NCBI GenBank assembly: GCA_029557025.1
Contig: JAKPRU010000735.1
Span: 1-13,341, forward strand
Direction: 5' to 3'
From: Candidatus Omnitrophota bacterium
GTDB lineage: Bacteria; Hinthialibacterota; Hinthialibacteria; Hinthialibacterales; JAKPRU01
Length of the DNA stretch: 13,341 nucleotides
Positions 1 to 13,029 of the stretch are shown piece by piece. How positions within the stretch are numbered: the first letter of the stretch is position 1; each line of letters begins with the position of its first letter. The notes below the pieces were generated by a model that saw only the letters and a program-made list of their open reading frames with translations, had not been told where the DNA came from and ran no database searches. The position numbers were made by a program, and so were the translations under genes.

Positions 1-1729
1 GGGTCAACTCGAACTGCACCCGGGGATCGTCAATAGAGATATTCGCGGGCAGGATTAAGGGATTTCGGTCTCCCTTTTCCCACAGGCTATGGATGACGAC
101 CGCCATCAGACGCAGGACTCCGCGGGTGCGCTGGAACTTCAACAAGGTGGACCAATCGGTGTAAAGCCGGTCAAAAACTTCGGGATGAATGGGATACGCG
201 GCCTTGATCCGCTTTTCGTAATCCGATTCCCGGCACTCCGGGGGGAATTCCTGGTGCTGGGTGCGGTAGAGGTCATAGAACGCGCGCGACACCGTATCCC
301 GCGCGACGAACTGATCCTTTTCAATGAGCGGTTCGAACAACCGCCGACGCACGATTTCGAAACTCTCCTCGGCGCTGGCTGGCCGCCAGGACGCTTCCAC
401 ACGCCCGACGGCATTGCGCAAGCGGTCGAGGGCAGCGCGTCCACGCTCCCCGCCGACTTCCACGTCATCGGCTTGGGCGTGAGGGGATCCGATCGTGTCC
501 GACGAGGGCAAACTGATTACCAGCATGCAGTGTTTCGCGAGTTTGGCCGATTCGGTGAGCGCCTGGGCGAAGGTGAAATGTGTCTCGAAACTCCCGCCCG
601 GCAGATCGGTGGCATCGTGGAGTTGGCGCGCGTAGGCGACCCATTCGTCGATCAGAATCAGGCAAGGCCCGTATTCATTCATCAACTCGCGCAGCGCATC
701 CCCGGGACTGGTGGCTTTTTCGTCGTCCGCCTGGACGCGCTTGTAGGCTTTCTTGCCGCCCAGTTGCCAGGCCAGTTCCCCCCACAGCGTGCGGATCACC
801 GTTCCATCCGATTTGACTACCGGATTGCCTGGAGAGATTTTGTTCCCTACCAATACTACCCGCCGGACCGAAGGCAGTTTTTCCACGCCGGCGTCCTTCA
901 ACACGTTGTCTATGCCCATGAGTTCCGATGGGGAAACTCCCGAAAACAGGTGGTAAAGCGCCAGCATGGAGTGGGTTTTGCCGCCGCCGAAGTTGGTTTG
1001 CAGTTGGACTACCGGGTCTCCGCCTTTACCGGAAAGCCGTTGCACCGCGCCGGTAAGAAGATGGTTCAAACTTTCCGTCAAGTAGGTTCGGCGGAAGAAT
1101 TCGACGGGTTGCTTGTACTCGTCGGTTCCCTCGCCCAGATGCACCTGCCACAGATCGGCGGCGAACTCAGCTTGTTGATAGCGGCCACTGGCCACATCCC
1201 GGTGGGGACTGACGACTTCCCGCCACGGTTTGAGCCCTCCGGTAACCTGGCTCTCGATGGCGGTACCCGAGCTCCGGCGCTTTTCAGTACGCATTTGTTC
1301 GTCGAAGATTAAGCGCCGGAGTTCCATCTTCATTTTGTTGATTTCATCGGCCTGCGGCGCGGAAATAGCGGTTAAAAGCCGCGCCATCGAATCCAAGGCC
1401 CGGTCGGTGTCATCACTGGAGAAGGTCTCCTGATGCGCCCACTTGTTGCGGGAATCGCGCAATTCACTCACCAGGCTGCGTTCTGCAAAGCCGAGAGGTT
1501 TGTGAAATACATCGTTCCAACAATCCCACATGAGTTTCAGCATGGCGGAGGCATCCCACTCCAGCAGCGGCTTGTTGACGAGCATCCGGTCATTTTTCAT
1601 GATCTCCAGTGCCCGTTCTTGGGGATTGTCATGGTACGTATTATCAAGTTCCCGCTCGATGAACGGACCCAAACCTTGCCGCAACAGTTCCAGCGCCTTG
1701 CCAACGCGTTCGTGATTAGTAATTGCCAT
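1..1729 (-). CDS. DUF499 AAA+-like ATPase with N-terminal Swt1-type HEPN domain, 3' part cut by window edge
   Basis: Translating the minus strand from 1729 gives 576 open codons running off the left edge. Start MAITNHERVG is preceded by AAAGGAG (1741-1735) with a 5-nt spacer. Residues about 1-150 resemble the Swt1-family HEPN domain, including the RX4H motif RNKWAH (R94, H99), the catalytic signature of many HEPN RNases. After a linker, the DUF499 ATPase region shows a Walker A, TNFGGGKTHS (K251, T252), and a Walker B, LILIDE (D361, E362), followed by WVAYARQL. DUF499 proteins are usually about 1000 residues, so roughly half is visible. In this family the ATPase is typically encoded next to a DUF1156 methylase, as here. 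It follows the methylase by 70 bp, a gap filled by a palindromic repeat. ATP-driven action in a modification/restriction complex is inference from family and context. The domain call is secure; RNase activity is not shown. Confidence 0.94.
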   Translation of the reverse strand, partial: MAITNHERVGKALELLRQGLGPFIERELDNTYHDNPQERALEIMKNDRMLVNKPLLEWDASAMLKLMWDCWNDVFHKPLGFAERSLVSELRDSRNKWAHQETFSSDDTDRALDSMARLLTAISAPQADEINKMKMELRRLIFDEQMRTEKRRSSGTAIESQVTGGLKPWREVVSPHRDVASGRYQQAEFAADLWQVHLGEGTDEYKQPVEFFRRTYLTESLNHLLTGAVQRLSGKGGDPVVQLQTNFGGGKTHSMLALYHLFSGVSPSELMGIDNVLKDAGVEKLPSVRRVVLVGNKISPGNPVVKSDGTVIRTLWGELAWQLGGKKAYKRVQADDEKATSPGDALRELMNEYGPCLILIDEWVAYARQLHDATDLPGGSFETHFTFAQALTESAKLAKHCMLVISLPSSDTIGSPHAQADDVEVGGERGRAALDRLRNAVGRVEASWRPASAEESFEIVRRRLFEPLIEKDQFVARDTVSRAFYDLYRTQHQEFPPECRESDYEKRIKAAYPIHPEVFDRLYTDWSTLLKFQRTRGVLRLMAVVIHSLWEKGDRNPLILPANISIDDPRVQFELT

Positions 1730-1734
1730 GGTTT

Positions 1735-1741
1735 CTCCTTT
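1735..1741 (-). promoter_or_regulatory. Ribosome binding site of the DUF499 ATPase gene
   Basis: AAAGGAG lies 5 nt before the ATG at 1729. It abuts the palindromic repeat at 1742-1799, so folding of that repeat in the mRNA could affect its accessibility. It fixes the start of the DUF499 gene. Confidence 0.75.
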
Positions 1742-1799
1742 GGGAGCGGGGAGCGGGAAGCGAGGAGCAAGAATATCCCTGCTCCTTGCTCTATGCTCC
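1742..1799. repeat. Imperfect palindromic repeat, family 2, intergenic copy
   Basis: This G/C-tract repeat fills nearly all of the 70-bp gap between the methylase stop and the DUF499 start. On the plus strand, 1742-1762 matches 4561-4581 at 20 of 21 positions. The second arm is built from GCTCC-type units (1780-1799) that can pair with the GGAGC units of the first arm. The central AAGAATAT core lies in the opposite orientation to that of the other copy. In the transcript it would form an intercistronic hairpin just before the DUF499 ribosome binding site. It has no U-tract, so it is not called a terminator. Confidence 0.7.
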
Positions 1800-4700
1800 T
1801 TATTCCTCAAACATGCTTGTTTGTTCGGATCTCGGCTTCATATTCTCCCGCGCCAGCCGTTCGATCTCCGGCCAACTGACGACCAGGCTATTGAATGCCA
1901 GCGCGTCCTGGGCCCATTTTCGGCGTTCGCAGACGATGTAAAGCCGATAAGCGAGTTCCCGGGCGGCCCCGGCATGAGCGCCGATTTTGAGGCGAATCCG
2001 CGCCGCCGCTTCTTCTCCCACCTTCTGTAAGGCGCGTATCAGTTGCAGGCTTACCTCCCAAACGGTCAGACGGGAATCCGTGGCTGGATCCCAATCCGCG
2101 GAGAGTTCCTCCGGTTTGAGCAATCGCACCTTCCCCCCCTTGGAAACCAGGATACCCGCCTCGGCCAGTCCAGCTACGCTGGTGTTTTTGGCGCGTGCGA
2201 GTACATCTGCCTGTCCGAATTCACCCTCGTTGAAACCGTACTGGTCGAACCAGGCCAGCGCCCAGCGGGTATCGGAATCGAAATCACCCTCCTGTTCGGC
2301 CAGCACCTCATCCAGGGTTTGGTTGATCAGCGCCAGTGCTTCCCGCACAGTAAGCGGATTGCCTTCGGCGTCCAGCACTTTTGAATATTTGGTATAGATC
2401 GCCATGCCCGGCCCGATCGCCGCTTGCGCCAGGTCAACAGGTGCAATATTGCTTCGTTGCAAGTAGGCCAGCGCCACAGGTAATTCCGACCTGAGCTTGT
2501 TAAGAAACTCACGACGCGTCGCAGTCAGCGCATTGGCCACGCGAGGACGGCAGACTAGGACAATACTGGATGCGAGGGCATTAAAGTTCTTTTTCAGATT
2601 GCCGGTGTATTCTGTACGCATAGGCCAAGTGCCAGTGAGAGCAAAACCCGCCTTAATTACTGCATCAAGAAAAGTCTCCCAACCAGTGGAAGATGTACCG
2701 TCGCTTTCGGTTTCCGATTGCTTAAAAGCATAATAGATTGTGACGGGAAAAACCGAATGAGCCTGTACCGCCAGCCGGTGCATGGCTTGGGCCATACCGT
2801 TTAGAAAAAAGGTTTCCGCGGCTTCTTTACTTCCATGACGATAAGGGGTAGCAACCAACTCCTCGGCTTTGGGAACAGACAAAGTAGCGAAAAGGTTTTT
2901 GAAAACCGATTTTAATGAACGACGTAGCCAAATATAAAAAAAATCCGATAGGTCAGCATAACCGATGTTATTATAATAAGGTGGATCAGTAGATACAACC
3001 TTGTTTTCACTTATTGATTGAAAAGCTGCATCTCCTTGAATCGCAAAACCTTTAGACATTAATGGTGCAGTTAGCAATTGACGATGTGCCTGCTCAATTC
3101 CTGCTAGATAGTTACCAGTCGATTCACTGAATGGATTTGCTTCTGCGAAATCCCAAACCATCGGAAGTGCTTGACGCCCAAACGTGCTTGTAACTGTGTC
3201 ACGACTACTATGCCAAGAACATAGTGATGACCAGTAATTCGAACCCTTATCCACCGCAAACCCCAAATACACCGCCATTGCGTCGGCGTATGCCTGCGCG
3301 CCGGTGCCGCCGTCATTAAGAGGAATCTCGTCCTGGGAGCGCGGGCGTCCCGCCCGCTTTTCCTCCTGATTCTTCGCGCTGCTCCAACTCCATTCTTCCG
3401 CGGTCTCACACAATCCTGCCTTTACCGGATTCTGCTCAATATACTCGACCGTTGCCGAATAGTGTTTCCCGTCCCGCATGGCGCGGTCGAAATACTCTTC
3501 CATCCAAAAAGGCCCGGTCTTCCTCAGAATCCGATTGGCTTCCTTGGCCGTATAGGATTTCCAGGAATGCAAGATTTCCGACAGACTGTATCCGGGCAGG
3601 GGAGTTGCCAACACATGCACGTGATTCGGTATAATGACCCATGCGTGAAGGCGGTAACGCTCTCCATCGAACTGCAGCAAGGCGTTTTCGATAACCTGGG
3701 CGATTTCCGGATCCTTCAGATGGCACGCGCCGAGACCTCGATCGAGGGTGGATTCGATTTGTTTCCGGAGTTCGCGTTGGGCCTCGGTTTTTGCAAGCCG
3801 GTGGAGTTCGTTTTCCCACGTTGCGCGTAAATCGGCGGGCAGGCTGTCGTGCAGGCGGAAGACGAGATGCTGCGGGATTTCCCCGGCTTCCCAGTGGGGG
3901 AGATAGCCGCGGGAGTGCCACTCTTTTAATGGGCGGGGCGCGGATTGGCGGGCGGGACGCCCGCACTCCCAGGAGAGGGCATCTTGCTTTACCCGTTCGC
4001 GTGCTTCCAGTACCAGATCGGAGAAAGTCGTCAAGGCCACGAGCTGACGGGGGGTGAAAAGATCGCCCCATTCTGTGAGTCCGTAGCCATAGCAAGTTCC
4101 GCCTGTCAGTCGGGCTGGAACATCACCCGATGGTTTCCAGGTTGGTTGCGCTTGATTGGTGATAGTTTCGTGCTCGGAGGTGGGTGAGAGATAAACTCGT
4201 CCATGATCACCTTCGGCAACAATAGCCATCAACCGTGCGCTCATGCGCCCGGCCTTGCCTTCAGCTTTGATGTAGTTTCCCGATATCGGTTCTCCTGACA
4301 TCACACAACGGAAATTTGCCCCGCGGGCCAGCTTGGTACCGTTTTTCGCCCCCTCTGGATTCTTTGGCTTTCCCATTTTTACCGTAAAGCGATAAGCGCC
4401 ATTTTCGATGACCGGTTCGACATAGGCCTCCTTGCCCGGCTTGGTGGAAAGCATGAAGGTGGAGACAAGGGGTACGTCCACATGCGCGAAGGCCGGATTG
4501 GGGCTTTTCACTGTCCGCGCCCACAGCCAGGCGATGACGGTTAGTTCTTCTACAGGAGTGGGGAGCGGGGAGCGCGAAGCGGGAATATTCTTGCTCCCTG
4601 CTCCCTGCTTCTTGCTCCATGCTTCGATCTCTTCCGGCGTCGCATGCCGGTACGTTCCATCTTTCTGTCGGACTACTTTGACCTTGGGGTAGAGATGGCC

Positions 4701-5372
4701 GATCCGCTTTTCGGCTTCGGCACGCATCCATTGGCCGTAGTAACGTACATCCTCGGCCAGCCCCTGCGCGCCACGCCACCTTCGGCTGAATAGTTGCTTG
4801 TCTTTCCTTGCCTCCGGATTCACGGGAGGCCTCCCCGCAAACTTGGGGGGAATTTCGATCATGGCCTTGTTGATCAATACCGCCACCGGATTGAGATCGC
4901 TGGCATACGCTTCCAGTCCCAACCGCTGCGCCTCCAATGGCAATGCTCCGCCTCCCGCGAAGGGATCATGGAAAGCGGGCAATTGGCCCGGATTGAACAA
5001 TTCCGCCGCGCGAGGGTGGTCCCGGTTCTCGGCACAAGTGGCCCGCCAGCTGCGCCAGATTTCATCCTGCGCTTGATTCAGAACATCCTCGTTGGCCGTG
5101 TTTTCCCATTTCACGAGTTCTTCGATCAAGCGAAAAAGCCGCTTGCGCTCTGCTTCCTGCTCCTCCTCCGTAGGGAATTGATCCGGGTGCGCCGAGGGAT
5201 CGTCCACCATCTGAGCAAAGATCACCGCCCGCGCGGCCGCCAGGGGACGCCGCGCCCACCACAGATGCAACGTGCTGGGATGCCCATGCCGGATGGATTT
5301 CTCCCGCGCGCTGGCCTTGTTGATGGCCTCCAACGGCAAAGCGACTTCGATGAGCTTTTTCTTGGTGTTCAT
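1800..5372 (-). CDS. DUF1156-family DNA methyltransferase (COG1743-like) carrying an in-frame RAYT transposase insertion
   Basis: Predicted adenine-specific DNA methylase. The N-terminus carries the DUF1156 signature ([19 protein letters not shown]). The S-adenosylmethionine-binding motif is DPFAGGG (D136-G142) and the catalytic motif is DPPY (D796-Y799), followed by [17 protein letters not shown] region at [10 protein letters not shown] corresponds to where relatives may carry a Zn-ribbon; only one Cys remains. Start 5372 ([10 protein letters not shown]) is chosen over the longer frame from 5462: it has GGGAG 6 nt upstream, overlaps the preceding stop as ATGA, and begins where the family homology begins. 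At 1190 residues it is longer than the usual 900-1000, because of two in-frame insertions: a palindromic repeat (residues about 252-271) and a RAYT element (residues about 467-681). Without them it would be about 950. Modification of self DNA is the expected role. Whether the enzyme still folds with the RAYT domain inside is unknown. GC falls to about 33% at 2881-3060, around the DPPY codons. Confidence 0.95.
3331..3357 (+). repeat. REP-like inverted repeat, left end of RAYT element
   Basis: This 27-bp sequence matches the reverse complement of 3948-3974 at 26 of 27 positions. Its core GCGGGCGTCCCGCCCGC is itself an imperfect palindrome, a REP hairpin. Read in the methylase frame it encodes RAGRPRSQ at the end of the insert. 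Confidence 0.88.
3948..3974 (-). repeat. REP-like inverted repeat, right end of RAYT element
   Basis: This is the partner of 3331-3357 in inverted orientation, with one mismatch. It encodes WECGRPARQ in the methylase frame, immediately before the RAYT homology begins. Head-to-head REP palindromes on both sides of a RAYT are the normal arrangement for such elements. Confidence 0.88.
4560..4620. repeat. Imperfect palindromic repeat, family 2, copy inside the methylase coding sequence
   Basis: Second copy of the repeat at 1742-1799: 4561-4581 is 20/21 identical to 1742-1762. The opposing arm of GCTCC units runs from about 4593 to 4618, with a GAATATTC centre at 4583-4590. It is translated as a low-complexity stretch ([18 protein letters not shown], residues about 252-271 of the methylase) with no stop codon. 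The methylase family has no reason to carry this stretch, so it is read as a miniature palindromic element inserted in frame. Confidence 0.72.
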
Positions 5373-7078
5373 GCAAAACTCCCGTTTTCCGATTCCAAAT
5401 CCGCTGCGGAGGTTACTCCCGTAATGCGCTGTATCTCCTGCCATAGTAGTGTCTGCCGCCACGTGAGAAAAGCATTGTAATCATTCCGCATGAGGGGTGA
5501 ATCCGGTTCCTTGGGCAAGCAATGAGAAGCGAGGACGGCCTCGAACGGAAAGCCGGGTGTATCGCGAATCTCGGCCAGGTATTCCGATGGCGCGCGGTCG
5601 TTGATCATCTGGTTCGTAGTGCGGTCAATGAGAGTGCGGTTCAAAACGCAATCACGCAACCGGACCGATGCAAGGCCATTCCGCTCCAGATAGGCCGCCG
5701 GGAAGATATGATGGTCGTCAATCCCCTCCACGGCCATGAGTTTGCTGGTGATGACCGCCTGGGTATGGAAATCGCGCGCTCCAGTACCCACTCCTAAAAT
5801 CAGGCAGATTATGCCCCGGTAAATCGATCGCTGGCGCGGCGTTACGTCCCGCAACGCCCGGGGATCGAAGCGGAAGGCGGCAACCGTTTCAGGTGGATTG
5901 CCTCCACCAAACCATGGCACGAGTTCGGTTACATCCTTTGCCGAACGGCTGTTGGGCGCGCTTTCGTAGGCCTGTCCGAAAACCGCGCACCAGAACCAGC
6001 GTTTCAATCTTTCGCGATGCACGCCGGCTTCGGCCGTTTTGGGACACCCCGACTTGGCGAGAACGGCCGCCAACGGAGGCAACATGGTCTGATAAGGCAG
6101 CCACTTGGGCAACATCACCTTGCAGTCATCGCGTAGAATCGTGAGGCCCTCCGCGAGTCCCTGAACGACCTTATCCCACCAGTCCCGAATATCCTCAACC
6201 GCTAGGTTTAGAACATCGCTACGCTTGCACGAAGGCGCTTTGCGGCAGGCGAGCGAGATGCCTTGCAGGATATAGTAGGGATCGACATCGAAATCTTCGA
6301 TCACCGGATACGCGGAGAGAGCTGCTTCCCAATAGGCCCGCAGGTTGATATTTTGCGGCCAGAAGCGGGCGGTGAGAAGTTCGAATACACTGAGTTTGAC
6401 GCCGGTTCGGTTTAGAGTCTCGAAGATGGTGCAAAGCGCATCCGGCTCGGTGTTTTCCGAGAGGGTCACGACCGGAAAATGGTAATCATCGATGGTTTTG
6501 ATCCACTGTTCATTGATCTTGGTGAGCGCGTCGAGCATCTGGGTGCGTTCGTCCGATAGCATCGGGTTCGTGACTTGGAGGAGCCACTGCAGAAAACCAC
6601 CTGCACCGCCTTTAAGGATGGACAGCGGGAGCAGGAGTTCCTTCGCTTGCAGGGTGAAATCCTCCCGGGCCTTGACCCATTTCGTCGAGGAACGTACGTG
6701 GAAAATCGCCTCTTCGAAGTCGGCGCCGTCGATCAACTTCCCGAGGTTTAGGTAGTATCGGTGATCACCCACTCCGTAGAACGCCTGATAAAGTGAGGTC
6801 AGCCTCTGCTGTCCATCCAGGACGAGGAAAGTGTGCTTTAATCCATCAAGTGGAGGAGCTCCCTCGAACTCGCGCGCGGCGAAAACACGCTTGGCGTCAC
6901 GCACACGCAGGATGCTGCCTGCGGGGTAGTTGTAGGCGATAGAGACGATCAACTCTTGGGTCGCGCTGGGCTCCCACACGAAATCACGCTGGAATTCGGG
7001 CAAGACTGTTGTGCGGTTATGGATCTCGGCCAGGAGATCCTTCAAAGCGCGGGGATTGGTGTCTTCAAAAATACTCAT
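5369..7078 (-). CDS. DUF262-DUF1524 (GmrSD/BrxU-type) putative modification-dependent restriction nuclease
   Basis: 569 residues. The N-terminal DUF262 (GmrSD N-terminal, ParB/Srx-like) domain includes [11 protein letters not shown] and the hallmark [10 protein letters not shown] (D88-R92), the nucleotide-binding/hydrolysing loop in GmrS. The C-terminus has the DUF1524 His-Me/HNH-like nuclease signature [12 protein letters not shown] (H456, H457), then VLNRTLI (N480) and TTNQMI (N489), with APSEYL after it. Both halves are therefore fused in one chain, as in type IV enzymes that cut glucosylated or otherwise modified cytosine DNA. Start 7078 has GGTGA 7 nt upstream. The stop overlaps the methylase start (ATGA), implying translational coupling. 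Cutting modified phage DNA is inferred from the family. An alternative is that DUF262 senses NTPs to gate the rest of the machine. Catalytic motifs look intact. Confidence 0.92.
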
Positions 7079-7162: not shown

Positions 7163-9406
7163 TCAGCGTCGGCTTCTTTTGGGTTTCGATCTCAAGATAT
7201 CCACAATCTCGGGTGCAATGGCGGCTTCGTCAATGCCGATATTGGCGTTGTGGGCTACGATGCGCGCCTGCTCCTGGGCTTCATGCTTCAATTTACGAAA
7301 CATTCCAATGATGATGAGTTCCAAATCCTTAAGCCCCTCCAAAAGGTCAGATTTGATCGTATCGTAGATGGGCCGCGCCGCATCCAGTGCGGTGGGCTCC
7401 AGTATGCCTAAAATACGACGCCTCATACCCGGACCGCTTTCTTCCTTGGCTTGGTCATACCCGGATTGCATTCGATTACGGGCAACCATGGACATATTGG
7501 CGGCTAGTTCTCCACGCCTTTCCCGAACCGCGGAGGCGATTTCCCGTTTCGCTTCGTCCGCCAAAGCATTGATCTTACTTCGAAACCATTCCAACTGCTG
7601 TTCCATTCGATCGTCGGCCGTGTGAAAGAGCAATTCGGCAATCAACCGGATTTTATCGCTGAAATTTTTCACGGATTCCGTCACCCGGATCACGAACTCG
7701 CTGGTGACGTGGCCCAGATCGTCCGTGAAATATTTTTCCCAGGATACCGGTAATTGCGCGAGCAGGGGCTCGGCCAGATCCTCATTGAAATCGTACGAAC
7801 GGCCCGTGGATGGGCTTTTGAAGATGCCATTCCGCTGCACGATGGCTCTCAAGGTTGCCCAGTGAATCGCGTGCCATCCCTCGATGACACGATTTACCCC
7901 CTGTACACTCGCTTCCAAAAGTGGATCCATTTTTTCCATAAAATGTTTGCGATAGAGTTCGAGTTGGATATTGACGCGCTGCTGGGCGTTTTGGATCTCG
8001 TTGGTGAAGGACTGATGCTCGGTTTGGAAGTGGGCGTGGGCTTCTTCCAACTCGGCAGAGGCGGAAGACGCCTTCGAACGAAAAAAGTATTCGATCTCTT
8101 CACCCAGTTGATCCAGCCGTCTTAAAGCGTTTTGAATATTAAAGACAGCGCCGGCTTCCTTGGTAATTTCTGCAAGATGCTCATGGATGCCGGATATCCC
8201 CGTGTCCCATTCGTTCTCGATGCCATAATCTCTCCGCAACCGCCCGATCTTTTTCAGTTTGCAGTATGCGCTGGCCGATGTGGTATGCACTCGGACCTGG
8301 CAGGCCACTTCGAGCAGTCGTTCAAGCGTCTCCCCTTCCTCACCCCGCGTGGCGAGATCGCGGACCATGATCTCGAGTTGCTTTCTCACCTCAGAAACGG
8401 TTTTCTCGCGATATGTTTGTATCAGTACATCGCGTTCGCAATCTTCCGGAAGTCCCAATTGCGGGGCTGCGTCATTATCGATGTCATCCGCCTTGGTGCC
8501 CACAAGAGACAAGGAATTATAGGCTCCGCTGAGAACCAGGAACCGCAGCAGTTTTTCTTCCTGGAGAATCTTGTGGATGTCATCCGTCAATCCCCGCACC
8601 ATGCTAAAAAGAATCCAAACAAACGGAGATGTGCGGAGATACTCGCGCGTGACTTCCACACGCGCCTCATTGGGATCGTTCAACCCTGGCAAATCGACGA
8701 TTTCAAGTCCTCCTGCCAAGCATGGGTAGGGCCCGCTGATATTGACCTCCTTGACGAGCGGCCAAAGGCAGTTGTCACCATGGACGAGCTGCCGCAACTC
8801 CGTCAACATCGGCTTGGCATCCTGAAAGACTTTCATTTGGGAGGGGCCTGCTCGAAATATATCTTTAACTGGTTCCGGCAGTTGATCGTAACTTAGATCC
8901 GGCAGATCAGACTCATCCAATGCATTATCCCCAAAAACGGCTTGGGCACGCTTCCGGGCTGCGTCTATCAATCTCTTCGATTCAGCGCGCCCATCACCTC
9001 CTTCATCTGTTTCACCCGGCTGCAGCGCTTTGATCAAGCTTTTCAGATCGTTCTCGAACTCCTCCCATGTGCAGAATTTAACCATGATCGAGTACCCGGA
9101 TTCGGGTGAATGAGTGATAGATGTAACAAAAGATGTACATGGCTGCATCACGCCAACCGGAAGTATTTCTTGACCCAGAACCGCATTCAGGAACGTGGAT
9201 TTCCCGGCTCCCGTTGTCCCCACCAAGGCGATACGTAGCTGATCAGGTTTGTCGATCCGATAGCGGATCAACTCCAGTTCTTTTCCCCAGGAATCTGTTT
9301 CCAGTGGATACGCCGGCCGCGCGAAAGGCTCCACCTTGTTAACGAACCAATGGTGGAATGCCTCCACTTCTTCTTTGGCGTTCTTTAGAATTTCTTCCGG
9401 ATTCAT
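7163..9406 (-). CDS. Dynamin-like large GTPase
   Basis: 747 residues. The N-terminal GTPase domain shows a G1 P-loop, GTTGAGKST (G63-T71), a G3 motif, DLPGLND (D238-G241), and a G4 motif, TKAD (T304-D307); a G2 threonine is probably in TSFVTS near residue 91. The remainder is long, charged and largely helical, with coiled-coil-like stretches (about residues 440-490 and 600-730), as in dynamin stalk regions. No clear transmembrane segment is visible, so membrane contact, if any, would be through an amphipathic paddle. Start 9406 has GAGG about 9 nt upstream and sits 14 bp after the helicase stop. Bacterial dynamins remodel or protect membranes, and some protect against phage lysis. A place inside a methylase/helicase operon suggests a defence effector or a mechanical GTPase subunit. 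That role is inference, but the GTPase family call is firm. Confidence 0.88.
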   Translation of the reverse strand: MNPEEILKNAKEEVEAFHHWFVNKVEPFARPAYPLETDSWGKELELIRYRIDKPDQLRIALVGTTGAGKSTFLNAVLGQEILPVGVMQPCTSFVTSITHSPESGYSIMVKFCTWEEFENDLKSLIKALQPGETDEGGDGRAESKRLIDAARKRAQAVFGDNALDESDLPDLSYDQLPEPVKDIFRAGPSQMKVFQDAKPMLTELRQLVHGDNCLWPLVKEVNISGPYPCLAGGLEIVDLPGLNDPNEARVEVTREYLRTSPFVWILFSMVRGLTDDIHKILQEEKLLRFLVLSGAYNSLSLVGTKADDIDNDAAPQLGLPEDCERDVLIQTYREKTVSEVRKQLEIMVRDLATRGEEGETLERLLEVACQVRVHTTSASAYCKLKKIGRLRRDYGIENEWDTGISGIHEHLAEITKEAGAVFNIQNALRRLDQLGEEIEYFFRSKASSASAELEEAHAHFQTEHQSFTNEIQNAQQRVNIQLELYRKHFMEKMDPLLEASVQGVNRVIEGWHAIHWATLRAIVQRNGIFKSPSTGRSYDFNEDLAEPLLAQLPVSWEKYFTDDLGHVTSEFVIRVTESVKNFSDKIRLIAELLFHTADDRMEQQLEWFRSKINALADEAKREIASAVRERRGELAANMSMVARNRMQSGYDQAKEESGPGMRRRILGILEPTALDAARPIYDTIKSDLLEGLKDLELIIIGMFRKLKHEAQEQARIVAHNANIGIDEAAIAPEIVDILRSKPKRSRR

Positions 9407-9420
9407 ATTTTGCTACCTCG

Positions 9421-12400
9421 TTAGCAGGGAGCGGTGGCTCGTTGAAGCAGTTCCGCGAAATCATAATTCACACTGGTCACACCGAAGTCCGGCTCCCGCC
9501 GGAAGGGCTGCCGCACATAGTGGACTTTGTAAGCCTCGCCATCCAGAAACTCTACAATGGCCAGGATGAAATCGTCGGGCTTGTTAAGCGAGTACAGGAT
9601 TTCGTTTTTCGTGACGGTGATTGATCCTGCGCCCGAAACACGCCCCTTCACCTCCAGGAAGCGCAACCGGCCGGTTTGGGGATCGAGACTTTCAATGTCA
9701 TATCCGAGTTTTTCTTGCTCACGGTCTCGGGGCACAAATCCCAATTGACGTTCCAATTCCATCACCACGGCCCGGGCCCGCGCCGATGATGCCTGTGTGT
9801 CGATCGGAAGGGAAAGAGCAGGCCCTATGTCCCGGCCGGTAATCCGTGCGATCAAACCAATGGGGATGACCACAAATCCTCCCAACACGGCCGGCGGCAT
9901 CGCGGATATTTGGGATTCACGATCGAGCTGTTCCAACCGCTTTTGCAACCGCCCCTGCAGTTCATCCGCGCGTCGGCGGGCTTCCTGCGAGTTGAGACGC
10001 GCGTTGGATCTACCGGCTTGCTCCTGAAGCCGCAGCTCCACCGACCGATGATCCCAGTAGCTGATTTCTTTGGTCAAGCGGTCTTTGACTGCCGCTCGTG
10101 TTTTATTGATCAACTCCAGACGCCGATTCCGCACCTCTTCCAAGTGCGCCGGAACCACCTCGGTAATCGCGTGAGCCAGCGCTTTTTGTTCCAATTCGCG
10201 GGTGATCCAGGCACACTCGGGGAGGGAGAGAAGCGTATCAATATCCGGTTCATCCTCTTTTAAGGGCCGGAAATCGAGATAAGGCGCATAATGGAGATGA
10301 TGGGTATTCCCTTCGTTATCCAACTCAACATAGAGCATTTGCTTTGAAATGACACGGTGCTCACTGTTTCTCGTGGCGCTCGCGTCCTGGATGGCATGCT
10401 CCATGTAGAAAAGGATTCGCGGCATGATTCCGGTATCACGCTCGTCAACCAAAATTGTGCCCCGCCGCAATAGATCACGCTGGCGTTCCAGAGTCAGATC
10501 GATCAAGGCGTCGAGGAGAGGGTGCCCCGGACAGACAAAGGCCGCCATAGGTTGATTCGGCGGCGCGACAAGATCCTTTTCGAAAGCGATGCGTTCATAG
10601 CGGGGAAGTACCGGCTCACCGACACCGATTAAGCGGTCCCGGTTACGGATTGGGCCAGGAACTTGCGTTACTTCATAACGCCGGGATTCGCGTTGCTTGA
10701 GGTGACCACCATGCTGTTTGAAGGCTTCCAGGAAAAATGACTCGATATAGTGCGGTTGCAGGCGGCGCGCTTCAGCCCGTTCCATCTCCTCGCGCACCCG
10801 GGCGACGCGGCTTACATCCATCGAATCATGAGCCAAAGCGCATTCCTCCAGCAGGTCTTGGATTTTCGGCCGGTCGATCGCGTTCTCAATAACCTGATTC
10901 AGGCGGGCGCGGACCTCAGGCCGTTCACCGTAACGAATGGCTTCGATCAACAAATCACGCAAGGGGCGGCCTTCAAATTGAATTTTGCCCAGGACATCGA
11001 ACACCTGACCGCCGAGCGCAGCCCGGGCCTGCTCCAATTTTTCCAGCAGTTTGCGATACACGTCTCCCTCGCGGGTCTCTTCCGCCACCAGATTCCACAA
11101 GTGGCATACTTCCGTCTGCCCGATACGATGAATCCGGCCAAAGCGTTGTTCGATACGGTTGGGATTCCAGGGCAAGTCGTAGTTCACCATCAAATGGGCC
11201 CGTTGAAGATTGATACCCTCTCCCGCCGCGTCGGTCGCCAACAAAACCTGAACGGTGGGATCGTGTTTGAAGGTCTCCTGGGCTTTCAGGCGCTCTTCCC
11301 GCCCCATGCCTCCGTGGATCACCACAATGGCTTGCTCCCGTCCTAGCAGCGTGATGATCCGGGCTTTAAGATAATTCAACGTATCCCGGTGTTCAGTGAA
11401 AATTACCAATTTCTGGGATGGGGATGACATCGGTCGCGGGCGGACAGGCTCAACCTCTCTATTGGTTGCTTTCTCCGTATCATGTTGATTCGTTGACGTA
11501 GTTGATGTGAATATTTCACTTAACAGATTCGCCAATTCCCGCCATTTTTTGTCCTCGCCGTTTCTGCGAACCTCGAGAGCCAACGACTCCAGCCTCTTCA
11601 GGGTTTGGATCTCCGCCTTCAGTTCGGTGATCGTTCGGGCAGCCGTGGCTTGATCAAGGACCTCTCCTTCGACTTCCTCGACTTCGTTGTCGGGCGCTTC
11701 ATCCAGATCTTCAAGGTCATCCGCATCCAGAACCGGCCCTAGCACTGTAATGCTCGATCCGGCTTCAGCCCCTCGATGCAGGAGTTCCAATTCCCGCAAC
11801 CGGCTTTCAAGGCGTTCCCGGCGGCGGCGCAAGGATTGATAAATCGCCTCGGGGGATGAGGCCAGACGCCGCTGGAGAATCGTAAGCGCAAAGCCCACCG
11901 TCCCAGCGCGCTTGTCGTTCTGCAGCGCCTCGGCGCGGTTGAACTCCTCCCGCACATAGTTGGTGACTTCCTTGTAGAGGTACGCTTCACCGTCGGATAG
12001 TTTGTACGGAACGGTATAAGCAATCCGCTCCGGGAATAGCCGCTTGCCATCGAACTTCAACAGGCCTTCCTTGATCATCCGGCGCATCAAATCCGAGGTA
12101 TCCACCGCATGGACGCCATCCCGGAATCGCCCCTCAAAACGGTCGCCATCCAACAACGCCAGGAATAGTTGAAAATCTTCCTCTTTTCCGTTGTGTGGCG
12201 TCGCGGTCATCAACAAGAAGTGCCGCGTCAAGGTGGCGAGCAATTGGCCAAGCTTGTAACGTTTGGTGTACTTGATCTCTCCCCCGAAGAAAGTCGCGGA
12301 GAGTTTGTGCGCCTCATCGCAGACAATAAAATCCCATCGACTCTCCGGCGCTTGTAACTTTCTTTGGACATCCTCATTCCGCGCGAGCTTATCCAGTCTG

Positions 12401-13011
12401 GCTATGACCAAATTGGTTTCCAGAAACCAATTTCCGGTCCGTGCCGCCTCCAGTTTATCGTTGGTCAGAATATCAAAGGGAAGATGAAAACGACGGTATA
12501 GTTCATCCTGCCACTGTTCCGCCAGACTCCCGGGGCAAACCACCAGGCACCGCTGTAAGTCCCCCCGCACAATCAACTCCTTGATCAGCAGTCCTGCCAT
12601 GATAGTCTTACCCGCACCGGGATCGTCGGCCAGCAGGAAACGCAATGGTTGGCGCGGGAGCATCACTTCATAAACCGCGGTGATTTGGTGAGGCAGGGGA
12701 TCAACATCCGATGTATGCACCGCCAGCACTGGATCAAACAGGTGAGCCAGCCGTATGCGGTGCGCTTCGGAGACCAACCGGAACAAATGGCCATCTCCAT
12801 CAAAACTCCAAGGACGGCCCTTTTCGACGATCTCCAGACGGGGCTCGTCATTGCGATAGATCAACTCATTGGCCACCCGTCCGGATGGATCCCTGTACGT
12901 CAGTTCAATCGCTTGGGTTCCAAACCACTGAACACACACAACAGTCACCAGGGCGTCAGGAAGAATGCCCCGTATAATGGAATTCGGTTGGATATCTTCA
13001 AGTCTGAGCAT
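9421..13011 (-). CDS. SNF2/DEAH-type helicase with C-terminal DUF3883 module
   Basis: 1196 residues from the second Met. This start is chosen because AAAGGA lies 7 nt upstream and family members begin MLRLEDIQP; the Met at 13029 has no ribosome binding site. Motor motifs: DDPGAGKT (K135, T136), DEAH (232-235), MTATPHNG, and in the second RecA lobe LLATDAAGEGINL and QRFGRIHRIGQ (622-632). A low-complexity linker (about 500-530) separates the lobes. Charged coiled-coil segments lie at about 385-420 and 950-1060. The C-terminus is DUF3883-like: LGYDIESL, then FLEVKGR, with D1106 and E1121-x-K1123 spaced as in PD-(D/E)XK nuclease folds. This architecture recalls the SNF2-like DrmD of class 1 DISARM and helicases found with DUF499/DUF1156 genes. 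Expected role: ATP-driven translocation on phage DNA, possibly with cleavage. It is the first large gene of the operon. Nuclease activity is inference. Confidence 0.93.
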   Translation of the reverse strand: MLRLEDIQPNSIIRGILPDALVTVVCVQWFGTQAIELTYRDPSGRVANELIYRNDEPRLEIVEKGRPWSFDGDGHLFRLVSEAHRIRLAHLFDPVLAVHTSDVDPLPHQITAVYEVMLPRQPLRFLLADDPGAGKTIMAGLLIKELIVRGDLQRCLVVCPGSLAEQWQDELYRRFHLPFDILTNDKLEAARTGNWFLETNLVIARLDKLARNEDVQRKLQAPESRWDFIVCDEAHKLSATFFGGEIKYTKRYKLGQLLATLTRHFLLMTATPHNGKEEDFQLFLALLDGDRFEGRFRDGVHAVDTSDLMRRMIKEGLLKFDGKRLFPERIAYTVPYKLSDGEAYLYKEVTNYVREEFNRAEALQNDKRAGTVGFALTILQRRLASSPEAIYQSLRRRRERLESRLRELELLHRGAEAGSSITVLGPVLDADDLEDLDEAPDNEVEEVEGEVLDQATAARTITELKAEIQTLKRLESLALEVRRNGEDKKWRELANLLSEIFTSTTSTNQHDTEKATNREVEPVRPRPMSSPSQKLVIFTEHRDTLNYLKARIITLLGREQAIVVIHGGMGREERLKAQETFKHDPTVQVLLATDAAGEGINLQRAHLMVNYDLPWNPNRIEQRFGRIHRIGQTEVCHLWNLVAEETREGDVYRKLLEKLEQARAALGGQVFDVLGKIQFEGRPLRDLLIEAIRYGERPEVRARLNQVIENAIDRPKIQDLLEECALAHDSMDVSRVARVREEMERAEARRLQPHYIESFFLEAFKQHGGHLKQRESRRYEVTQVPGPIRNRDRLIGVGEPVLPRYERIAFEKDLVAPPNQPMAAFVCPGHPLLDALIDLTLERQRDLLRRGTILVDERDTGIMPRILFYMEHAIQDASATRNSEHRVISKQMLYVELDNEGNTHHLHYAPYLDFRPLKEDEPDIDTLLSLPECAWITRELEQKALAHAITEVVPAHLEEVRNRRLELINKTRAAVKDRLTKEISYWDHRSVELRLQEQAGRSNARLNSQEARRRADELQGRLQKRLEQLDRESQISAMPPAVLGGFVVIPIGLIARITGRDIGPALSLPIDTQASSARARAVVMELERQLGFVPRDREQEKLGYDIESLDPQTGRLRFLEVKGRVSGAGSITVTKNEILYSLNKPDDFILAIVEFLDGEAYKVHYVRQPFRREPDFGVTSVNYDFAELLQRATAPC

Positions 13012-13018
13012 GGTTAAA

Positions 13019-13024
13019 TCCTTT
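13019..13024 (-). promoter_or_regulatory. Ribosome binding site deciding the helicase start
   Basis: AAAGGA lies 7 nt before the ATG at 13011. The upstream in-frame ATG at 13029 is preceded only by an AT-rich stretch and the stop of a short upstream frame. The internal start is therefore preferred. Confidence 0.65.
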
Positions 13025-13029
13025 GGCAT

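What the first reader, a model, noticed from the sequence alone, without database searches (positions are those of the whole stretch)
3331..3974. A complete REP-RAYT-REP transposable element sits in frame inside a defence methylase
The transposase has intact HUH (NHVHVLA) and Tyr (VEYIEQNP) motifs and is bounded by 27-bp inverted REPs matching 26/27. It lies between the SAM motif DPFAGGG and the catalytic DPPY of the DUF1156 methylase, yet the host frame stays open on both sides and the family sequence resumes at [16 protein letters not shown]. The element has no own ATG before its transposase domain, so the natural product would be a methylase-transposase-methylase chain. Either this is a very recent frame-neutral insertion tolerated in a loop, or a domesticated hairpin-binding ssDNA transposase domain inside a defence enzyme.
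Basis: partly seen in the sequence, partly recalled or inferred. Interest (0 to 1): 0.88.

Follow-up and report, generated by a model that had tools for sequence, protein, structure and literature searches.

The report
Transposase lodged inside defence methylase
A small jumping-gene enzyme sits, without breaking the reading frame, inside a bacterial anti-phage DNA methylase, and related bacteria show that such enzymes have entered the same two loops of these methylases several times and have mostly stayed intact there.

Summary
In detail: a 644-bp RAYT cassette with inverted-repeat ends (3331-3974) lies in frame in hmaB, the DUF1156 methylase of an Hma / BREX-related type-1 operon. It is neither unique nor a private recent hit. 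In an insert-biased list, 109 of 120 HmaB proteins (the window's included) carry a RAYT; all 112 inserts lie at one of two loops (77 at B, the window's; 35 at A). In sampling blind to the insert, 6 of 32 other HmaB genomes (28 showing site B) carry one, all in frame. Embedded RAYTs are not one clade. They keep HUH and Tyr (115 of 117), mostly have no Met ahead of the domain (90 of 103), and in one 28-member clade diverge together with their hosts. In the six carrier genomes, all 7 RAYT matches at 1e-20 lie inside DUF1156 methylases. Other repeat-bounded guests, one a DUF559 nuclease, use the same loops. Best reading: a read-through, non-splicing HUH element that repeatedly lodges in permissive methylase loops and travels with the defence operon. 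A defence role of the HUH domain is not excluded. The paper searches made found no description of this.

The parts
1800..5372 (-). hmaB with the insert, 1190 aa from ATG 5372 (ORF open to GTG 5462): DUF1156 methylase of an Hma / BREX-related type-1 system
   Evidence: (PDLC00660 HmaB 1499 bits)
3331..3974 (-). 644-bp RAYT cassette, repeat to repeat, at loop site B of HmaB
3948..3974 (-). 5' terminal repeat in coding sense, read in frame as SWECGRPAR; forms a hairpin as ssDNA
   Evidence: 33-nt stretch, -11.3 kcal/mol, z -4.0
3331..3357 (-). 3' terminal repeat in coding sense, read in frame as AGRPRSQD; hairpin with 7-bp stem
   Evidence: 33-nt stretch, -10.0 kcal/mol, z -1.8, 9 of 200 shuffles fold as well
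3380..3925 (-). RAYT / Y1 HUH transposase domain, catalytic H-x-H and Tyr intact, no ATG/GTG/TTG start ahead of the domain (limits approximate)
4554..4618 (-). second, unrelated repeat-derived in-frame insert at loop site C of the same methylase (..[20 protein letters not shown]..); 72% complementary to 1743-1807
2..1810 (-). HmaC, DUF499 ATPase with N-terminal Swt1-like HEPN, cut by the contig end
5369..7078 (-). GmrSD_N-type accessory gene
7163..9406 (-). dynamin-like GTPase accessory gene
9421..13029 (-). HmaA, SNF2-type helicase with C-terminal NOV_C domain
   Evidence: PDLC00659, 1699 bits

Best explanation
It is a mobile HUH cassette (RAYT between two hairpin-forming inverted repeats) that lives in frame inside a loop of a defence methylase. 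Shown by sequence: open frame across both junctions, no ATG/GTG/TTG start of its own, intact active site, recurrence at two loops of HmaB in many lineages, polyphyly of the embedded RAYTs, and no match outside DUF1156 methylases at E<=1e-20 in the six carrier genomes tested. Inferred: the cassette is made only as part of the HmaB chain, folds as a separate lobe at the edge of the target-recognition region, leaves the methylase working, acts (if at all) on REP-like hairpins in single-stranded DNA from there, and is spread mainly by horizontal transfer of the Hma operon plus occasional strand transfer into palindromic repeats already sitting in permissive loops. In effect it is an intein-like passenger that is tolerated instead of spliced.
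For: Two sites: of 112 RAYT inserts in 109 of 120 proteins (window included), 77 follow ref 435-488 (B) and 35 follow ref 183-203 (A) of the insertless Meiothermus protein, none elsewhere. Sampling blind to the insert: 6 of 32 non-own HmaB genomes (28 with site B covered) carry a RAYT, five at B and one at A, all six in frame on the coding strand. Repeat ends: 103 of 110 inserts have a translated repeat motif upstream, 90 of those 103 without Met between it and the domain; the motif is loose, but occurs in only 36 of 5000 random 75-aa stretches of insertless HmaB, and upstream of 1 of 81 empty A sites and 0 of 81 empty B sites. DNA: of the six other inserted hmaB loci, L147, L148 and L168 start with CCTGGGAGCGCGGGCG, L146 and L167 with variants, L169 differently. 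Repeated entry or exit: 38 label changes on a 350-row RAYT tree, 12 on a careful 56-row tree with at least 5 forced by starred branches, 45-54 changes of insert state on HmaB trees of 200 rows (biased sample). The same loops hold unrelated repeat-bounded guests: a bare repeat pair at B beside a RAYT at A (L148), two other inverted-repeat families (L170, 25 and 20 nt) and a DUF559 cassette with a 22-nt inverted pair (L188). Carrier genomes: 7 of 7 matches at E<=1e-20 lie in DUF1156 methylase ORFs (second host L187). Active site kept in 115 of 117 embedded vs 229 of 233 free RAYTs.
Against: No transposition, excision or target-site signature was demonstrated; no near-identical second copy was found, so present mobility is inferred. 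Embedded and free labels are more clustered on the RAYT tree than shuffled labels (12 vs mean 19.4, 0 of 200 as low), and in a 28-member site-B clade RAYT identity (mean 0.777) tracks host identity (mean 0.760; r 0.72, 0 of 1000 permutations): long co-inheritance with selection on the domain, which fits host use at least as well. In two other clades there is no such tracking (r 0.27 and 0.21). The six carrier genomes were chosen because they carry the fusion, and one (G338) is only 59% complete. Embedded and free states could also interconvert by escape from the methylase. One related RAYT sits in frame in an SNF2 helicase (L043), so lodging is not exclusive to methylases.
Confidence: 0.6

Rival explanations
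1. Domesticated domain: the HUH domain has been recruited, several times, to give HmaB an ssDNA/hairpin-binding or nicking activity next to its target-recognition region, useful in defence (for example acting on replicating or folded phage DNA).
For: Active site retained in 115 of 117 embedded copies; embedded RAYT about as conserved as the methylase in a 28-member clade and more so in some others; 7 of 7 matches at E<=1e-20 in six carrier genomes inside DUF1156 methylases, one of them a second, distant methylase; another nuclease, DUF559, at the very same loop in L188; PMC12839542 places the TRD after core strand 2 (passages and section 29 seen), from which I infer that both sites lie in or at the edge of it.
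Against: In the sample blind to the insert, 22 of 28 HmaB genomes with site B covered have no RAYT, so it is dispensable for Hma; repeat ends are kept at DNA level (26/27 in the window; 29-31 nt at site A of L148); the same loops also take repeats without any enzyme; the trees need many switches.
Confidence: 0.27
2. A transient, purely accidental insertion in this one genome that happens to be frame-neutral and is awaiting loss.
For: The four nearest HmaB relatives of the window lack an insert; only recognised case of its 5' repeat frame (1 of 89); one mismatch only between the repeats.
Against: The same loop is occupied in many lineages; no source copy found in the genome; long co-inheritance is seen in other clades.
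Confidence: 0.08
3. One ancient acquisition at each site, with later replacement of the RAYT by recombination between repeats or by swapping of the region between A and B. (Overlaps with the mobile-passenger and domestication readings; the odds given are not exclusive.)
For: Sites are exactly two; free RAYTs interleave with embedded ones partly at low-support forks; N-part and C-part identities differ in some pairs (P0110/P0015 0.958 vs 0.793); P0031/P0056 have 0.895 core but 0.68 RAYT identity.
Against: The 80 loci, chosen as insertless, mostly show a short loop without repeat scars at A and B (seen by eye); insert state switches 50 and 54 times also on trees from the C-part or N-part alone.
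Confidence: 0.15
4. Assembly or binning artefact.
For: The window is one whole contig (C679) of a 1271-contig draft with 5.9% contamination.
Against: Same architecture in independent assemblies with contigs of several megabases, including proteins named for Chloracidobacterium thermophilum (P0024, P0054) and the single-contig genome G544; window GC 0.548 is like two other loci of the same genome (0.548, 0.56).
Confidence: 0.02

Closest known systems
REPtrons / TIRtrons: RAYT (TnpAREP, TIRYT) genes flanked by palindromic repeats (PMC3733652, section 16 and passages seen; PMC8266576, passages seen)
   Same: HUH/Tyr active site, flanking inverted hairpin repeats, best PDB match to a RAYT-REP complex
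   Different: No GTAG foot; no own start codon; co-translated inside another protein; the same two loops of one methylase family used again and again. [quoted passage not shown]
In-frame palindromic elements of Rickettsia (RPE)
   Same: Palindromic repeat inserted in frame in open reading frames that likely encode functional proteins (as described in a passage of PMC3733652)
   Different: To my knowledge RPEs carry no enzyme; here the whole RAYT is inside the host protein
Inteins
   Same: Enzyme-bearing in-frame insert; one HmaB (G512, L170) carries Hint and LAGLIDADG domains directly after DPPY
   Different: Pfam finds no Hint domain in the window's protein; loops rather than the active site; no reason to expect splicing
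Hma system (PMC8565338, passages seen) = Type-1 BREX-related (BR) system (PMC12839542, passages and section 29 seen)
   Same: HmaA, HmaB, HmaC with HEPN present
   Different: HmaB carries a RAYT; the BREX paper's main text has 'RAYT' 0 and 'transposase' 0 times, and the passages seen of the PADLOC paper do not mention one. The two papers differ on the base: predicted m5C in PMC8565338, N6-adenine in PMC12839542.

Membership tests
RAYT (REP/TIR-associated tyrosine transposase) | Y1 HUH domain with H-u-H and catalytic Tyr | tested here: met
   NCBIfam NF047646 88.1 bits over cut-off 80; PF01797; residues kept; 4er8 best PDB match
RAYT (REP/TIR-associated tyrosine transposase) | Flanked by inverted palindromic repeats | tested here: met
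   27-nt repeats 26/27, each predicted to form a hairpin
RAYT (REP/TIR-associated tyrosine transposase) | Classical REP with GTAG tetranucleotide foot | tested here: not met
   No GTAG in the element; fits the TIR type instead
RAYT (REP/TIR-associated tyrosine transposase) | Repeats disseminated in the genome | tested here: not met
   17-nt core exactly only at the two ends; one further place with one mismatch; a fragmented draft can lose repeats
RAYT (REP/TIR-associated tyrosine transposase) | Cleaves REP hairpin ssDNA | not testable with these tools
   needs a cleavage and strand-transfer assay
Hma / Type-1 BREX-related system | HmaA, HmaB, HmaC neighbours on one strand | tested here: met
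   PADLOC models PDLC00659, 00660, 00662; two other genes lie between HmaA and HmaB; HmaC cut by contig end
Hma / Type-1 BREX-related system | Anti-phage activity | not tested
   no experiment
Intein | Hint splicing domain | tested here: not met
   Pfam finds only DUF1156, Y1_Tnp and MethyltransfD12 in the window's protein at 1e-3

The most novel reading that the evidence does not exclude
DUF1156 defence methylases are a preferred home for read-through nuclease cassettes (HUH RAYT, DUF559, possibly others) at the borders of their target-recognition region; the embedded nuclease is kept catalytically alive because it adds an activity against invading single-stranded or hairpin DNA, so methylase and nuclease are joined by transposition into one R-M-like protein, repeatedly and convergently.
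Probability: 0.2. Interest if true: 0.88.

Novelty: new variant of a known kind. Interest (0 to 1): 0.72.

Why it matters
RAYTs are often regarded as domesticated transposases of unclear benefit. Here are many cases, from several entries, in a gene with a testable function (methylation, phage defence), where a RAYT can apparently persist only as part of a host protein. That allows a clean test of whether HUH activity is kept for the element or for the host. It also shows that whole enzymes, not only short palindromes, can be carried in frame by bacterial genes, and that defence methylases have at least two loops that accept them.

Tried and rejected
Considered and rejected: (a) multicopy insertion burst: no further copy found in the genome. 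(b) Single domestication: RAYT trees. (c) First-pass sister grouping of the window's RAYT with P0170/P0179: not recovered in the careful tree, where its place is not starred; nearest by identity are other site-B inserts (67% at best). (d) RAYT genes enriched around hmaB in general: in the 80 insertless loci L050-L129 only 1 other RAYT within the flanks (L089) at 1e-4; the 81st locus (L190) was picked for having one. In the samples, G115 (L137) has one weak RAYT hit (25.8 bits) beside hmaB on the other strand. (e) Viral contigs and plasmids as sources: no relative found with the full protein in viral contigs, two distant RAYTs not near an hmaB, no plasmid match of the RAYT at 1e-20, 7 viral-contig HmaB loci without RAYT, of which L198 is split and L199 stops at site A.

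Limits: the two big lists are biased (towards inserts, towards insertless genes). dN/dS was not computed, because DNA of close insert-bearing pairs was not in reach. The model has pTM 0.46, so domain arrangement is not claimed; that the sites border the target-recognition region is inferred from sequence order. Site labels in the trees rest on a motif upstream of the insert and agree in number with the mapping. Four tree rows (pieces of P0030 and P0032) were dropped for length, and these two proteins were given their state by hand; the start-codon count dropped 7 of 110 inserts whose repeat or motif was not recognised and sees only Met, not GTG/TTG. Seven of the 117 embedded RAYTs are hmaB fragments recognised among supposed free proteins. 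Literature: DUF1156 with Y1_Tnp 0 papers; DUF1156 with transposase 1, passages seen, unrelated; RAYT with in-frame 109 papers, 20 listed, listing only; RAYT/methyltransferase/defense system/fusion, 15 of 1350 listed, listing only; Y1 transposase with methyltransferase 1, listing only; also listings. Only CC0/CC BY/CC BY-SA PMC text was searched, so 'not in print' is not proven. Bertels 2017 was not held. The name REPIN, the idea that P0051-type inserts are antisense readings and the Vsr-like label of DUF559 are recalled.

Full report
What is there. The window holds an Hma (BREX-related type-1) operon on the minus strand: HmaA 9421-13029, a dynamin-like GTPase 7163-9406, a GmrSD_N gene 5369-7078, HmaB 1800-5372 and the first part of HmaC with its HEPN domain 2-1810. 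HmaB contains a RAYT between two 27-nt inverted repeats, 3331-3974. The host frame is open on both sides and there is no ATG/GTG/TTG in frame ahead of the RAYT domain. The insert is predicted to fold well by itself and resembles 4er8, a RAYT bound to its REP hairpin. The repeats are predicted to form hairpins as single strands but lack the GTAG foot.

The genome. G000 is a draft of 4.69 Mb in 1271 contigs (presumably a MAG); the window is its contig 679. The element was found once; its 17-nt repeat core occurs only at the two ends plus one place with one mismatch; the only other RAYT found at 1e-3 is 42% identical. GC of the window is like that of two other loci of the genome.

Relatives. Of the 120 best HmaB homologues, a list biased to inserts because the query has one and including the window's own protein, 109 carry a RAYT by HMM and 11 do not. 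Mapped on the insertless Meiothermus protein P0112, the 112 inserts fall at two places only: 35 at site A (after residue 183-203) and 77 at site B (after 435-488, alignment ends overlapping); P0002, P0003 and P0084 have both. Eighty loci from GTDB species, kept for an unbroken match and therefore insertless, show the empty loops: A ..NPESRKDKDLFAREWKGAQGLA.., B ..RDALAAGLPDDGKPLRDGGTGATAYAEA.. with variation. To get a fairer rate I searched with the part of HmaB downstream of site B: 15 of 291 genomes of one phylum and 20 of 386 spread genomes including the own one match at 1e-100. Of the 32 different non-own genomes, 6 carry a RAYT: G103, G098, G544, G667 and G362 at B, G338 at A; four (G173, G371, G008, G640) do not reach site B, and in G640 the contig ends there. 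All six inserts are in frame and on the coding strand.

One origin or many. A RAYT tree of 350 rows (36 A, 81 B, 233 free) needs 38 changes of label and shows A and B copies interleaved with free RAYTs. A careful 56-row tree around the window needs 12, at least 5 forced by starred branches; shuffled labels need 19.4 on average, so labels are clustered, i.e. partly inherited; the window's own place is not firmly resolved. On HmaB trees of 200 rows insert state changes 45 times, and 50 or 54 times when only the C-part or the N-part is used. The counts depend on a biased sample and cannot tell gain from loss, but a single origin without later switching is excluded. The window's four nearest HmaB relatives in the set are insertless.

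Kept alive inside the host. Both His and the Tyr are kept in 115 of 117 embedded RAYTs (exceptions P0003 site B and P0046) and 229 of 233 free ones. The window's own RAYT departs at one conserved place, Ile for Met just before NHVHV. In a 28-member site-B clade RAYT identity averages 0.777 and host identity 0.760 with correlation 0.72 (0 of 1000 permutations reach it); the six other clades tested range from 0.21 to 0.86, three of them weak (129, 204 and 390 of 1000). Of 103 inserts with a recognised upstream repeat peptide, 90 have no Met between repeat and domain; that peptide motif is rare by chance (36 of 5000 stretches) and nearly absent upstream of empty sites (1 and 0 of 81). In the six carrier genomes, all 7 RAYT matches at 1e-20 lie in methylase ORFs of 1067-1399 aa, and G640 has none; the seventh is in a second, distant DUF1156 methylase of G544. 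Outside this set, G029 has five strong matches in short frames and one in an SNF2 helicase ORF, and G011 seems to have remnants of a more distant RAYT in a frame-broken DUF1156 methylase.

The loops take other guests. L148 (G338) has a RAYT at A and a bare repeat pair at B; L170 (G512) has two other inverted-repeat families at A (25 nt) and B (20 nt) and an intein after DPPY; L188 (G681) has a DUF559 nuclease between a 22-nt inverted pair at B; L093, L107, L127, L168 and the window itself have repeat-derived peptides at a third loop, C. This favours permissive loops used by several mobile elements over one recruited function, but two unrelated nucleases at one loop of a methylase keep the functional reading open.

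Prior knowledge. Hma is described in PMC8565338 and, as Type-1 BR, in PMC12839542, which places the target-recognition insert after core strand 2; that both sites lie in or at the edge of it is my inference. RAYT classification PMC6006769 states that unexpectedly long proteins were discarded. In-frame palindromic elements are known from Rickettsia. None of the text seen reports RAYTs inside these methylases.

Verdict. I give 0.6 to a read-through mobile passenger, 0.27 to a defence function of the HUH domain and 0.15 to old acquisition with later replacement (these overlap, so they sum to more than 1), and little to accident or artefact.

Noticed in passing
L188 (G681:C205:3900-10000), hmaB site B: A DUF559 nuclease domain between inverted repeats (SPTQPSPAGGGL..SSPWRGEVGRG when translated) sits in frame at the same loop where others have a RAYT; DUF559 genes may be another repeat-associated mobile nuclease.
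   Followed up: partly
L170 (G512:C147:5000-10900): HmaB of 1559 aa with an intein (Hint and LAGLIDADG) directly after the catalytic DPPY and repeat-derived inserts at loops A and B.
   Followed up: partly
L187 (G544:C1:2679000-2685500): A second RAYT of the same genome lies in frame in a different, distant DUF1156 methylase, flanked by repeat-like peptides.
   Followed up: yes
L043 (G029:C27:164500-170000), 720-3776: RAYT domain in frame inside an SNF2-type helicase ORF of 1019 aa.
   Followed up: partly
L084, L087 (two), L093, L095, L045: Extra partial copies of the hmaB 5' end (29-46 codons) lie 1.3-4 kb upstream of the intact hmaB, as if accessory genes had arrived with a duplicated hmaB start.
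   Followed up: partly
window 1742-1762 and 4561-4581: A second repeat family (GGGAGCGGGGAGCG..) in the window, one copy near the hmaB/hmaC junction and one read in frame at loop C of hmaB.
   Followed up: partly
P0051, P0037, P0087, P0090, site A: Other long site-A inserts, some with EIGNRGEEIGNRG-like repeats, looking like a reading of another small gene in a wrong frame or strand.
   Followed up: no
L045 (G017), site A: A further insert of about 110 aa at site A of HmaB that is not a RAYT.
   Followed up: no
L198, L199 (viral contigs): One hmaB is split into two pieces about 2 kb apart, another stops at site A.
   Followed up: no
searches lists: JGI names many free-standing RAYTs 'putative DNA methylase', perhaps an annotation spill-over from the fused proteins.
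   Followed up: no
L190 (Candidatus Chlorohelix plasmid NZ_CP128402.1): A free IS200-like transposase gene and a four-helix-bundle gene flank an insertless hmaB inside the Hma operon.
   Followed up: partly
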